Positions 29,773 to 34,257 of a DNA stretch of 64,000 nt are shown in pieces. Under the pieces are notes generated by a model that saw nothing but the letters and a program-made list of their open reading frames with translations, was not told the origin of the DNA and did no database searches. The position numbers and the translations under genes were made by a program. Origin of the DNA: Verrucomicrobiota bacterium JB023 (lineage in GTDB: Bacteria > Verrucomicrobiota > Verrucomicrobiia > Verrucomicrobiales > Akkermansiaceae); assembly GCA_030673895.1 (NCBI GenBank), contig JAUTCR010000010.1, positions 1 through 64,000 of the forward strand, given 5' to 3'. Positions within the stretch are counted from its first letter, which is position 1, and each line of letters starts with the position of its first letter.

Positions 29773-29866
29773 GATGGCTTCCATTTCCCTTCTCCCGGGC
29801 CGGATGATTGTCCGGAGAAAATAAAAAAGTTGTCACCGACGCCCTCGTTCATTGCTCTAGTCAGTA

Positions 29867-32551
29867 ATGATCGGGCAGTCGGATGTTTCCAAGGAGGTTG
29901 AGCTGGTGTCTCGGGCGCGGGCCGGAGATGCGCGGGCGTATGTCGAATTGGTCGAGCGCTACCAAGGTCTGGTTTCAGCAGTCACCTTGTCGGTATTGGC
30001 AGATCGGACCTTGAGCGAAGACGCTGCCCAAGAGGCATTTCTCAGCGCATGGAAGGCGCTGCCGAATCTCCGGGAGCCGTCGAAGTTCCGTCCTTGGCTG
30101 ACTGCGATTGCCCGGCGAGCGGCCTTGAAGGGCTTATCAATGAGAGCGCAACGGGCCGACGACGAATTGACAGAAAGAGCGGATCAAAGGCTGGGGCCAG
30201 ACGAGATGGCCGCCCGGGGTGATGACCTGGCTTTCGTTCTGTCTTCGCTGAAGACCTTGCCGGAAGCCTACCGCACCCCGTTGATTCTTTTCTACCGCGA
30301 AGGGCATTCAGTGGCGAAGGTGGCAGAGTCGTTAGGCATGAAGCCTAGTGCGGTGAAGCAGAGACTGAAGCGCGGGCGCGAGATGTTGCGCGACAAAGTG
30401 GAGTCGCGTCTCTCCTCGGCGTTGCGGCGCACGGCGCCCGGGACGGCTTTCACGGCGGCAGTGGCAGCTGCACTGGGTCAAATGGGGGGAGCGGGTTCGG
30501 CTGCGGCGGCAGGATTGGGAGAAGTTTTTGTCACCTCCGGGTCATCTGCTGCCACTACATCGGTAGTAACTGGTGCAACGATGACGACTTCAAAATTTTC
30601 AGCAATTACGGCGACGGTCCTTTTAGCGGCCGGACTTCCACTAGGCTATGGAGCGAGCAAGTTGATGCAGGAAGCGGCTTCCTCGTCCCAACTCGCTGGT
30701 AGTAGAACGACCCCGCATGAGGTAACGCTCGACGAACTCCGGGGGAGGCCTCTGCCGCCTAGCCGCGTTGTCGATGAGTGGCGGCGACTGGTTGCAAAGC
30801 ATGGTAAGGCACCTTCCTCGATGGCAGGCATTCGAGATGAGGTAGAAACCTTTCCTGATGGATTCTTGAAAGATGCACTCACTACCACCCTCTTCACCAC
30901 TTGGGTAAGAATCGATCCGGAGGGTGGATTCACTGTCTTGAGCGAGGATGGGGATTGGCCGGAGAAATATTTGTTTACGGAGGAGTGGATCAAGGCCGAT
31001 GCCAGCCGGGCGATGGAAGCAATTGTGTCTTCCGGAAATGAGAATTGGATCACTTCTACCGGCAAAATACTTGGTGGACGAGATCCTAATGTCTTCAGCG
31101 ACTATCTGGAGCAGTTCAACTTTAAAATAGGACTTACGACGGGGGCCAATCGGGGGCTTGAGCGGGCCGCGGAGTTGGCTCCCCACCGAATCCTCGAGGC
31201 CGCTCTGGCAATGGATGAGGGCGAAGCCAAAGGGGGCGTTCTGAACGCAGCGATCAAAGGCTGGGCGAAGAGGGAGCCTCAAGATGCGTTGGCTTGGATT
31301 CAGGAAAATCCAAGTGAGGACGGCATCGTGCAACGGGATCGTTTGTTTTCAATTGTCAACGGATGGACGGAGAAAGACGCCGATAGCTTCCTTAAGGCCT
31401 TACCCAAATTGTTAAAGGGAGAGTTGCCAGAGGGCTGGATGACCAAAAAGGAACTCCGGACAAGGTGGGTCACGATGGCGTTGGCGAAAGTAGCCAAGGA
31501 TGACTTCCCGAAAGCCATTCGCTACTTGGGAGAGAACCGAGACGACCTGCGATTTGAGAGTGTGGCTCCCGAACTCAATCAACTGATCCTTGAAAGAATG
31601 GCGGTTGCTCCGCGGGAAACGCTTGTCTTGCTCGAGATGGAGGGGCTCATGAATGAGGGGGAACGAATTTTTTCGAACCTTTCCTATTCTAACAAAGATT
31701 TTCGACCAAACTTCGAGGAGCTTTGTGAGACTTTGCATGAACTCGGAGAGAGCAAGGGGAAGAAGGCGCTTGTGCAGAGCTTGTCGATGATGCTCGTGCG
31801 GCAGTCCGAAGAGGACGCGGTCAAGCTGGTGGACAGTGCTGCTCACGGGAAGAATTACGAGCAGCTTAAGGACAGGGTGGTCTCAAGCTTAATGAGAAAC
31901 GATGTTACTTACAAACGGTTGATTGAGCTTGAGAGGAAATTTCCTCACTGGGCAAATAACTTCAAGAGTCATGCTCTGGAAGAGAATGCCTCGGGCTTCC
32001 GAAGATACCCGGGGCAACCTCGTCAGGCCGTTGAGCTTTCGACTTGGATACCGGTCTTTGAAGAGTTGATGGAGAGCGGCTACTATACGGGATATGATGA
32101 GTATATTCTTTTTAGGCCGGTCTTCGGGCTTGGACCTGCCTACCTTGCCCAGGATCCCGATGCGGCGATACGATGGATGAACGAGGTTACTGAGGGCGCG
32201 ATGAAAGAGTCTCTTCAGCAGGACTTACTTGGCCAGACCGTCGCTTCCTGGATGGGTGAGGAAAGTGAACAGGCTCTCACTTGGCTGCATGAGCAGGACT
32301 GGTCGAGCTGGCATCCCGACTTTTTGGGATCGGTTTGTTACGAGGCGACTCGCTTGAAAGGAGAACCCCATTTGTTCTGGGAACTCTTCGCATCGATTGA
32401 AGGAGAGGAAAGGCGGCAAAGCGCAATCTGGACCTTGCAAGAAAATCGGGATGCTCAGCAAATCCGGATGGAAATGGATGGGCTGAATCTGACGCCAGCG
32501 GAGAGGCAGGAGATCGACCGCTACCTGAACGTAGAACTCATTGAGCAATGA
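29867..32551 (+). CDS. ECF sigma factor fused to a membrane segment and a long repeat-containing C-terminal domain
   Basis: The 894-residue protein begins with an ECF sigma factor: sigma region 2 at about 10-90 (VELVERYQGLV, DAAQEAFLSAWKAL, FRPWLTAIARRAA) and region 4 at about 125-180 (LPEAYRTPLILFYREGHS, KPSAVKQRLKRGREML). A low-complexity Ala/Gly/Ser/Thr linker leads to one hydrophobic segment near 245-265 (ITATVLLAAGLPLGYG). The remaining 620 residues are helical with recurring WxxxxPxxAxxWl-type units such as WAKREPQDALAWIQENP. The topology implies a membrane-tethered sigma factor with an extracytoplasmic sensor. The stop overlaps the next start (ATGA). I know no characterised homologue. 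Confidence 0.85.
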   Translation: MIGQSDVSKEVELVSRARAGDARAYVELVERYQGLVSAVTLSVLADRTLSEDAAQEAFLSAWKALPNLREPSKFRPWLTAIARRAALKGLSMRAQRADDELTERADQRLGPDEMAARGDDLAFVLSSLKTLPEAYRTPLILFYREGHSVAKVAESLGMKPSAVKQRLKRGREMLRDKVESRLSSALRRTAPGTAFTAAVAAALGQMGGAGSAAAAGLGEVFVTSGSSAATTSVVTGATMTTSKFSAITATVLLAAGLPLGYGASKLMQEAASSSQLAGSRTTPHEVTLDELRGRPLPPSRVVDEWRRLVAKHGKAPSSMAGIRDEVETFPDGFLKDALTTTLFTTWVRIDPEGGFTVLSEDGDWPEKYLFTEEWIKADASRAMEAIVSSGNENWITSTGKILGGRDPNVFSDYLEQFNFKIGLTTGANRGLERAAELAPHRILEAALAMDEGEAKGGVLNAAIKGWAKREPQDALAWIQENPSEDGIVQRDRLFSIVNGWTEKDADSFLKALPKLLKGELPEGWMTKKELRTRWVTMALAKVAKDDFPKAIRYLGENRDDLRFESVAPELNQLILERMAVAPRETLVLLEMEGLMNEGERIFSNLSYSNKDFRPNFEELCETLHELGESKGKKALVQSLSMMLVRQSEEDAVKLVDSAAHGKNYEQLKDRVVSSLMRNDVTYKRLIELERKFPHWANNFKSHALEENASGFRRYPGQPRQAVELSTWIPVFEELMESGYYTGYDEYILFRPVFGLGPAYLAQDPDAAIRWMNEVTEGAMKESLQQDLLGQTVASWMGEESEQALTWLHEQDWSSWHPDFLGSVCYEATRLKGEPHLFWELFASIEGEERRQSAIWTLQENRDAQQIRMEMDGLNLTPAERQEIDRYLNVELIEQ

Positions 32552-34257
32552 ACAAGAATTGGATCTATGCTACGGTGTTTGTCGTAGCTGTGCTTTTAGG
32601 AGTGGGATGGCATGACTCCACGAAAGATAGCAACCCGGAAGACCTTTTGGCGGGCTCCCTTCCGACCAAGTCGAGCCGGAGGGTGTTGTCTGCGAAGCGT
32701 GAGCAAGAGGTAGCCGGATTGACCCGGCTTCAACAGGAAGAAGGGGGGGAGGAAAGTTGGCTGCGCTGGTTGGCGGAGCTGGAGAACGCGACCTTGGCTG
32801 ACATGCCTCGATTCGTCAGTCATGTCCCTGACCATGGACCGGCTCGTGATCTGGTGGTCGAGCGGTGGCTCGATCTGGGTCCGGACGAGGCGATCGACTA
32901 CTTCCAGAAGAAGTTCGCTGCGGGAGAGATGGGAGCGGGAATGCTCGATCCCGATGTTCAGTTCGTGGCGATTTTGTTTGACGCTTGGGCGAAGCGGGAC
33001 TTGGACGGAGCCATTGCTGCTCTGGAGGCAATGGAAGCCTTTCCGTTTCTGGAAAAGAGAATTGCGAGGCTTGCTGAATTGCTGGCGGGCAAGGAGCCGG
33101 AGCGAGCCATTCGTTTGGCAATGAGGCACAACGTCCATCGGAGCGGCCGAACCTTTTTGGTCAGAGGCGGTCGACTACGAGATTGGATCCAGCGTGACCC
33201 AGAGACGGTAGCAGAGCTGATCTTCGCGTGGGGCCGAGAGGATTATGCGTTGAAGGACCTGGCCAAGCATTGGGGTGCGTCCAGCCCGAAGGACGCGATA
33301 GCTTTCGGGCTGGCAAGAGGCGGAAGTAATGCGCAGGAGTTCGTGGACGAGGTCTTCCAAAGCTGGGCGAGGAGAAATTATGGTGAGGCGGCGCAGTGGT
33401 TGAGTGACGAGGCAAGTGACGAAGAGGCTTCTCTCTTTACGGCTCCTCTCGTCGGAGTATGGGGAGAGTCGGATCCCCAAGCGGCGTTGGGGTGGTGCGA
33501 GGAGAATTTGGAAGGAATGCCCCTGGTCGAATCGGTGGGGCGCTTGGTGATTGGTTCAGTGGATTCCAAGGGCGTGAGCGCAGGGGACTTGTTAGCACGC
33601 ATCGACGATGAGAGAGTGCATCGGGAGGTGGCCGTTCGCTTGGCCCACTCGCTTTGGGGCAAGGGACTTGACGAAGAGGGAGCGAAGTTGGTGGAAGAGC
33701 GGCTCGCCTGGTTCGATCACATCCGGGAACCGCAAACTTGGGAGAGGATTATTCCGAATCTTACGCTACTAGGTGAATACGAGGCGGGAGCCAAGTGGTT
33801 TCGTGAGTTCGTCGAAAGAGAAGAGGCCGCGCAACTCGGGCGGTATGCGTCCGAGTCTCTCCTATTGGGGATTGCCGGTCAGGGTGATTATGCAGGGTCG
33901 TTGGCAGCGGTGGAACTCATGAACAAGCCGCATCAAGAGGAACTGTATGCGTCCCTTTTCTCGGGTTGGGTGAAGCGTGAACCGGAGGCGGCGGCGGACT
34001 GGCTTGAGAACCTTGATGGAACCGATTCCCGCCGAGCGCATCTCGGAATGGATTTGGCGCAGAGATTCTTCTATCTCGTGAATCGTCATCCTCAGGATCA
34101 CGACACCGTAGCCAGTCTGGCTAAGACTGTGGATCCAGCCTTCCGTCAATTGGTTATAGACAGCTTGAGGCGCCAGCAGGCCAATTCGGCAAGTTCCTTG
34201 CGGACTGATGGGACGGAGGTTGACTTTGATATGATGATTGAAGCCTTGTCTGATTGA
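32548..34257 (+). CDS. Membrane-anchored repeat protein translationally coupled to the sigma-repeat fusion
   Basis: The 569-residue protein has one N-terminal membrane segment (IYATVFVVAVLLGVGW) and an extracytoplasmic helical domain with the same type of repeat as the C-terminus of its upstream neighbour: GPDEAIDYFQKKF, WAKRDLDGAIAALEAM, WGASSPKDAIAFGLARGG, WGESDPQAALGWCEEN and WVKREPEAAADWLENL. The start codon overlaps the sigma gene stop in ATGA, so the two are made together, probably in fixed ratio. It lacks a sigma or anti-sigma motif. A partner or regulator of the tethered sigma factor is the simplest idea; function is unknown. Confidence 0.8.
   Translation: MNKNWIYATVFVVAVLLGVGWHDSTKDSNPEDLLAGSLPTKSSRRVLSAKREQEVAGLTRLQQEEGGEESWLRWLAELENATLADMPRFVSHVPDHGPARDLVVERWLDLGPDEAIDYFQKKFAAGEMGAGMLDPDVQFVAILFDAWAKRDLDGAIAALEAMEAFPFLEKRIARLAELLAGKEPERAIRLAMRHNVHRSGRTFLVRGGRLRDWIQRDPETVAELIFAWGREDYALKDLAKHWGASSPKDAIAFGLARGGSNAQEFVDEVFQSWARRNYGEAAQWLSDEASDEEASLFTAPLVGVWGESDPQAALGWCEENLEGMPLVESVGRLVIGSVDSKGVSAGDLLARIDDERVHREVAVRLAHSLWGKGLDEEGAKLVEERLAWFDHIREPQTWERIIPNLTLLGEYEAGAKWFREFVEREEAAQLGRYASESLLLGIAGQGDYAGSLAAVELMNKPHQEELYASLFSGWVKREPEAAADWLENLDGTDSRRAHLGMDLAQRFFYLVNRHPQDHDTVASLAKTVDPAFRQLVIDSLRRQQANSASSLRTDGTEVDFDMMIEALSD

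What the first reader, a model, noticed from the sequence alone, without database searches (positions are those of the whole stretch)
29867..34257. Membrane-tethered ECF sigma factor with a fused repeat sensor and a translationally coupled repeat partner
Seen: sigma regions 2 and 4, a Gly/Ala/Ser/Thr linker, one membrane segment, then about 620 residues of W-x4-P-x2-A-type helical repeats; the next gene starts in the sigma stop codon and encodes a membrane-anchored protein with the same repeats. No anti-sigma factor is present. Inference: like-with-like repeat contacts across the envelope could hold or release the sigma domain, possibly through proteolysis, giving a one-and-a-half-component envelope sensor unlike classical sigma/anti-sigma pairs.
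Basis: partly seen in the sequence, partly recalled or inferred. Interest (0 to 1): 0.8.

Follow-up and report, generated by a model that had tools for sequence, protein, structure and literature searches.

The report
Membrane-tethered sigma factor with solenoid partner
A gene switch protein (an ECF sigma factor) is built into the cell membrane, carries a large helical arm predicted to face outside, and is made together with a second membrane protein bearing a related arm; the same two-gene kit recurs in related bacteria with different sigma heads, which suggests an unstudied way of passing signals across the cell envelope.

Summary
29867-32551 encodes an 894-aa protein: intact ECF sigma regions 2 and 4, an Ala/Gly/Ser/Thr linker, one weak membrane segment, and about 600 residues of alpha-solenoid. 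The next gene (32548-34257) overlaps its stop codon (ATGA) and encodes a membrane-anchored solenoid. The two solenoids are distant homologues (hhalign 99.8%), although the exact W-x4-P-x2-A motif occurs only once in the sigma protein. No Pfam or NCBIfam family covers them. The pairing recurs: 14 of 20 fused-sigma genes with a readable downstream side (a hand-picked set) are followed at once by a membrane-anchored partner, 13 with a repeat-profile match. Two different ECF subtypes sit on sister solenoids, so the sigma head has been exchanged. Sigma-less tandem solenoid pairs also exist. A TTGTCACC promoter-like footprint precedes every subtype-1 sigma-solenoid gene and TGTCCGG the subtype-2 genes, so the sigma domain is probably active and autoregulatory. 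Membrane-tethered ECFs are already known (IutY/ECF243; ECF48, 52, 53), but those carry an anti-sigma-like part; none is detectable here. Most likely mechanism, inferred: tether and proteolytic release. Novelty: new variant of a known kind.

The parts
29820..29858 (+). Putative autoregulatory ECF promoter: A-rich stretch, -35-like TTGTCACC (29830-29837), 16-nt spacer, -10-like GCTCT (29854-29858); start codon 8 nt further on
   Evidence: Same element upstream of the subtype-1 sigma-solenoid genes of L001, L002, L003, L201a (=L095) and of the broken copy L204; strict form occurs 4 times in the whole genome
29867..32551 (+). ECF sigma factor fused to membrane segment and alpha-solenoid, 894 aa
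29948..30139 (+). Sigma-70 region 2 (residues 28-91)
   Evidence: Pfam PF04542 E 3.3e-14
30245..30388 (+). Sigma-70 region 4 (residues 127-174)
   Evidence: Pfam PF08281 E 3.0e-11
30401..30595 (+). Ala/Gly/Ser/Thr-rich linker (residues 179-243)
30437..30481 (+). Post-sigma4 helix (residues 191-205), conserved in the sigma subtype; possible built-in regulatory element (inference)
   Evidence: Helix 191-205 in the AF2 model at low confidence; same 'T.PG..FT' segment in L001-L005
30596..30652 (+). Membrane segment (residues 244-262, FSAITATVLLAAGLPLGYG) with a Pro that is invariant among 7 relatives
30764..32545 (+). C-terminal arm: alpha-solenoid, about 595 residues, no Pfam/NCBIfam family
32548..34257 (+). 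Partner gene, 569 aa, starts in the sigma stop codon (ATGA)
32563..32619 (+). Partner N-terminal membrane anchor (residues 6-24)
   Evidence: KD 1.49; Lys near the N-terminus (MNKN; MKK/MKR in relatives)
32719..34254 (+). Partner alpha-solenoid, residues 58-569
   Evidence: AF2 mean pLDDT 80.5 for the whole chain, all helices; homologous to the sigma arm

Best explanation
This is a two-gene trans-envelope signalling module. The first protein is an active ECF sigma factor held at the inner membrane by its own single membrane segment, with an exported alpha-solenoid sensor arm. The second is a membrane-anchored solenoid that descends from the same ancestral arm and is made next to it. SHOWN by sequence: the architecture, homology of the two arms, recurrence of the pair, exchange of the sigma head, and a conserved promoter-like element upstream. 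INFERRED: the two arms contact each other in the periplasm and keep the sigma protein in a protected, inactive state; an envelope signal that disturbs the pair exposes the sigma protein to site-1 cleavage and then site-2 (RseP/M50) cleavage in its membrane segment, freeing the sigma domain, which switches on its own operon and a few other genes.
For: Intact sigma regions 2 and 4; closest structural matches of that part are P. aeruginosa AlgU and E. coli sigmaE. TTGTCACC/TGTCACC upstream of all five intact subtype-1 sigma-solenoid genes plus the broken copy L204, and of L218 and L005 (same sigma subtype, other membrane part); among the other sigma-type ORFs scanned only L028 and L036 have it. 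TGTCCGG lies upstream of the subtype-2 genes and several related ones. Immediate downstream membrane-anchored partner in 14 of 20 fused-sigma loci with a readable downstream side, 13 of them with a repeat-profile match; ATGA overlap in W, L001, L207b and L224, 1-nt overlap in L201a and L227. Arms homologous over 517 columns including the membrane segment. Pairwise identities of sigma arm and partner correlate at 0.93 over 7 pairs, sigma domain versus sigma arm only 0.70. Sigma heads of two separated ECF clades sit on sister arms (support 1.0). Pro in the sigma membrane segment is invariant in 7 relatives. An M50 site-2 protease is encoded. Published precedent for release: IutY; proposed for ECF48/52/53 (PMC8999054).
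Against: No experiment. The membrane segment of the window protein is weak (KD 1.45) and AF2 gives it no confidence. M50 proteases are near-universal (all 14 control genomes), so their presence says little. The Pro is absent from several more distant fused sigmas such as L219, L224 and L227. Arm-arm contact was not modelled. The 0.93 correlation is not corrected for shared species history, and sigma domain versus partner is also high (0.87). In one search the W/L001 sigma arms sit on a long branch away from the other sigma arms. The L198 partner has no repeat-profile match.
Confidence: 0.48

Rival explanations
1. The sigma factor works while still attached to the membrane, in the manner of ToxR or CadC: the paired arms change the clustering or conformation of the tethered sigma domain, and RNA polymerase is recruited to the membrane without cleavage.
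For: A long flexible linker (about 65 residues) would allow it; no anti-sigma domain detected that would need removing.
Against: The better-studied membrane-fused ECFs are reported to be released, or proposed to be (PMC8999054); promoters would have to reach the membrane.
Confidence: 0.2
2. The conserved helix just after sigma region 4 (residues about 185-205) acts as a small built-in inhibitor, and the arm and partner move it. The system is then a degenerate sigma/anti-sigma fusion.
For: The segment is conserved across the sigma subtype even where the membrane part differs (L004, L005).
Against: Much shorter than known anti-sigma domains; modelled at low confidence; no Pfam anti-sigma hit.
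Confidence: 0.15
3. The sigma and partner genes are neighbours for reasons unrelated to sigma control: the solenoid pair is an envelope scaffold and the sigma fusion merely couples its expression to itself.
For: Sigma-less solenoid pairs exist (L203, L205, L213, L215, L216, L230) and single solenoid proteins are common.
Against: The fusion recurs with two sigma subtypes, each with its own upstream motif, so sigma activity on this module appears to be kept by selection.
Confidence: 0.12

Closest known systems
IutY (ECF243) of Pseudomonas putida, sigma fused to a membrane anti-sigma part, released by Prc and RseP (PMC8999054)
   Same: One polypeptide with cytoplasmic ECF sigma, membrane segment and outside part; no separate anti-sigma gene
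   Different: IutY carries an anti-sigma part and belongs to an iron-starvation cell-surface signalling system; here no anti-sigma domain is detectable and the partner is a homologous membrane-anchored solenoid
ECF48, ECF52 (SCO4117) and ECF53 of Actinobacteria (PMC8999054)
   Same: C-terminal membrane extension of an ECF sigma with an outside part; release by proteolysis proposed
   Different: They have a zinc-finger anti-sigma-like domain and one or two membrane helices; no solenoid partner reported in the text read
ECF42 with C-terminal TPR extension (PMC8999054)
   Same: Helical-repeat C-terminal extension thought to bind a partner protein
   Different: ECF42 extension is about 200 residues with no membrane segment mentioned; here about 600 residues beyond a membrane segment
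Planctomycete ECF sigma factors with WD40 repeats (PMC8567305)
   Same: ECF with repeat-type extra domains in the PVC group; some recovered in detergent-soluble fractions
   Different: WD40 beta-propellers, not alpha-solenoids; no paired partner described in the passages read

Membership tests
ECF sigma-70 factors | Sigma regions 2 and 4 present | tested here: met
   TIGR02937 82.7 bits vs cut-off 42.9; PF04542 and PF08281 above cut-offs
ECF sigma-70 factors | Autoregulated promoter with group-specific -35/-10 | tested here: inconclusive
   TTGTCACC footprint across diverged relatives; sequence evidence only, no transcription data
TIGR02989 Rhodopirellula/Verrucomicrobium sigma family | Score over the curated cut-off | tested here: not met
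   76.6 bits vs cut-off 124.55
Sigma/anti-sigma fusions (IutY, ECF48/52/53 type) | Fused anti-sigma domain (zinc-finger or similar) | tested here: not met
   No anti-sigma domain by Pfam; the stretch between sigma4 and the membrane is one low-confidence helix plus disorder
Sigma/anti-sigma fusions (IutY, ECF48/52/53 type) | Membrane segment with outside domain | tested here: inconclusive
   Segment weak in the window protein, stronger in relatives; topology not measured
Sigma/anti-sigma fusions (IutY, ECF48/52/53 type) | Proteolytic release of the sigma domain | not testable with these tools
   Needs an experiment
Numbered ECF groups of the 2021 classification | Match to a group model | not testable with these tools
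   The group models and the paper are not held
TPR / HEAT / Sel1 and other Pfam repeat families | Pfam hit over the cut-off | tested here: not met
   None over the cut-off in the window proteins or the relatives listed

The most novel reading that the evidence does not exclude
A class of trans-envelope signalling in Verrucomicrobiota with no anti-sigma factor: an ancestral pair of homologous membrane solenoids has more than once taken on different ECF sigma heads, and the solenoid-solenoid interaction itself is the switch that holds or releases the sigma factor.
Probability: 0.33. Interest if true: 0.75.

Novelty: new variant of a known kind. Interest (0 to 1): 0.56.

Why it matters
The 12 genomes of this order that were searched carry 28 to 113 sigma-70/ECF-type matches each, and how ECFs without an adjacent anti-sigma gene are controlled is named as an open question (PMC8103513). 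Here is a compact module with a predicted promoter, a defined partner and an exchangeable sigma head, so the question becomes testable. It also adds a probably exported alpha-solenoid repeat family that Pfam and NCBIfam do not hold.

Tried and rejected
Repeat identity: no Pfam, NCBIfam or convincing PDB sequence match; weak hits such as ANTH or Pex19 rejected as composition. Fold search of the partner gave only generic eukaryotic solenoids at low TM-scores, so no function was taken from it. AF2 of the membrane region: no confidence, not used as evidence. Regulon by pattern: the loose motif hits mostly look like chance or coding DNA; the strict form left 4 sites in the genome, of which the sigma gene and a PI-PLC-type secreted protein are intergenic and promoter-placed; a ppx/gppA-like site in R. 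ishigakijimensis is not conserved in our genome. A 42-sequence IQ-TREE run timed out; FastTree used instead. Conserved neighbours as targets: neighbours differ between W and L001, rejected. L222, L223, L226, L201c, L218 and L221 lack an adjacent solenoid partner, so the pairing is common but not universal.

Full report
WHAT IS THERE. Gene 1 (29867-32551, 894 aa) has intact ECF sigma regions 2 and 4 (TIGR02937 82.7 bits against a cut-off of 42.9), a linker of Ala, Gly, Ser and Thr, one membrane segment at residues 244-262 and an all-helical remainder from about residue 300 (AF2 mean pLDDT 74). Gene 2 (32548-34257, 569 aa) begins inside the stop codon of gene 1 (ATGA), has an N-terminal membrane anchor and an all-helical remainder (mean pLDDT 80.5). 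Neither solenoid matches a Pfam or NCBIfam family. A profile-profile comparison nevertheless aligns the two proteins from membrane segment to C-terminus (99.8%, 517 columns), so the two arms are distant homologues.

IS THE PAIR REAL. The same two-gene order was found in Roseibacillus ishigakijimensis (L001), L002, L003, two copies in G099 (L201a, L201b) and G019 (L202), and with more distant sigma heads in L207 (two pairs), L219, L220, L224, L227 and the window's own genome (L198). Reading the junctions: ATGA overlap in W, L001, L207b and L224; 1-nt overlap (TGATG, TAATG) in L201a and L227; gaps of 1-12 nt in L201b, L202, L207a, L198 and L219; 40-42 nt in L002 and L003. Of 20 fused-sigma loci with a readable downstream side, 14 have a membrane-anchored partner immediately downstream; 13 of those match the repeat profiles and one (L198, 428 aa) does not. 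The sample was picked by hand from long open frames, so this is not an unbiased rate. Relatives of the solenoid are spread over the phylum (42 of 388 genomes at E<1e-15), often as sigma-less proteins with an N-terminal membrane segment; tandem sigma-less pairs occur in L203, L205, L213, L215, L216 and L230. That most sigma-less relatives have an N-terminal membrane segment directly before the solenoid, and that the segment of gene 1 aligns with that of gene 2, is the main argument that the arm of gene 1 is outside the cytoplasm. The segment itself is weak in hydropathy.

IS THE SIGMA DOMAIN ALIVE. Upstream of the sigma gene lies TTGTCACC-N16-GCTCT (29830-29858) behind an A-rich stretch. TTGTCACC (in L201a TGTCACC) occurs upstream of all five intact subtype-1 sigma-solenoid genes and of the broken copy L204, although W and L001 are only about 40% identical as proteins and W and the others 25-26%. 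It also lies upstream of L218 and L005, which carry the same sigma subtype on a different, polytopic membrane part. Among the other sigma-type ORFs scanned only L028 and L036 have the 7-mer upstream. A strict form occurs four times in the 4.03-Mb genome. Subtype-2 genes carry TGTCCGG instead. This is what an autoregulated ECF promoter would look like; it is a footprint, not a measured promoter.

SIGMA HEADS ARE EXCHANGED. Sigma heads of subtype 1 (W, L001, L002, L003, L201a) and subtype 2 (L201b, L202) fall in separated ECF clades. Yet the arms of L002, L003 and L201a are sister to those of L201b and L202 (support 1.0), and share 31-33% identity with them against 17-19% with W. The W and L001 sigma arms sit on a long branch in that tree, so their placement is not relied on. 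Identities of sigma arm and partner correlate at 0.93 over the seven pairs, sigma domain and partner at 0.87, sigma domain and sigma arm at 0.70. The correlations are not corrected for species history. The simplest reading is that arm and partner are inherited together and the sigma head is replaceable.

MECHANISM. Shown: architecture, homology, coupling, footprint, head exchange. Inferred: arm-arm contact, silencing by tethering, release by proteolysis. A Pro in the sigma membrane segment is one of 29 invariant columns among seven relatives, which is compatible with site-2 cleavage but not proof; more distant fused sigmas lack it and two of the partner anchors contain one. An M50 protease is present, as in every control genome.

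KNOWN RELATIVES. Membrane-tethered ECFs with C-terminal outside parts are known and are released, or proposed to be released, by proteolysis: IutY (ECF243), ECF48, ECF52, ECF53 (PMC8999054). Planctomycete ECFs with WD40 repeats are also reported (PMC8567305). None of the passages read describes a solenoid arm with a homologous membrane-anchored partner, and no anti-sigma domain is detectable here. The ECF group classification itself could not be consulted, so it is not excluded that one of its groups already lists this architecture.

LIMITS. Trees are FastTree on repeat proteins with long branches; the alignments behind the AF2 models held 11-12 sequences; no complex was modelled; the literature held is open-licence papers only.

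Noticed in passing
L004:5740-7488, L005:376-2010, L218:3960-5750 (-): Same sigma subtype as the window gene fused to a polytopic membrane part instead of a solenoid; TTGTCACC upstream of L005 and TGTCACC upstream of L218. A second kind of membrane module on the same sigma head.
   Followed up: partly
L203:5504-9193 (-) and L215:4032-7531 (+): Sigma-less tandem pairs of solenoid proteins, each next to a ribosomal-protein-S1-like gene, in two different families of the order.
   Followed up: partly
L201 (G099:C259:29000-48000): Four sigma-membrane fusion genes within about 16 kb, two of them complete sigma-solenoid/partner pairs of different sigma subtypes.
   Followed up: partly
L198:98-3400 (own genome, contig C30): A second sigma-membrane fusion (670 aa) followed after 3 nt by a 428-aa membrane-anchored protein without a detectable repeat-profile match.
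   Followed up: partly
L209:7573-9899 (own genome, contig C70): Two overlapping (4 nt) sigma-less membrane solenoid genes in the window's own genome.
   Followed up: no
L292 (G000:C57:27325-27354): Strict TTGTCACC promoter-like site 89 nt upstream of a secreted PI-PLC-type protein (PF16670); possible regulon member.
   Followed up: no
window 29800-29815: A TTGTCCGG site, the motif of the other sigma subtype, starts 22 nt upstream of the TTGTCACC element, within an inverted repeat CCGGATGATTGTCCGG; possible cross-regulation or a hairpin.
   Followed up: no
L204:4763-7687: A broken copy of the module in G028: sigma reading frame in pieces, partner intact; decay or assembly error not resolved.
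   Followed up: no
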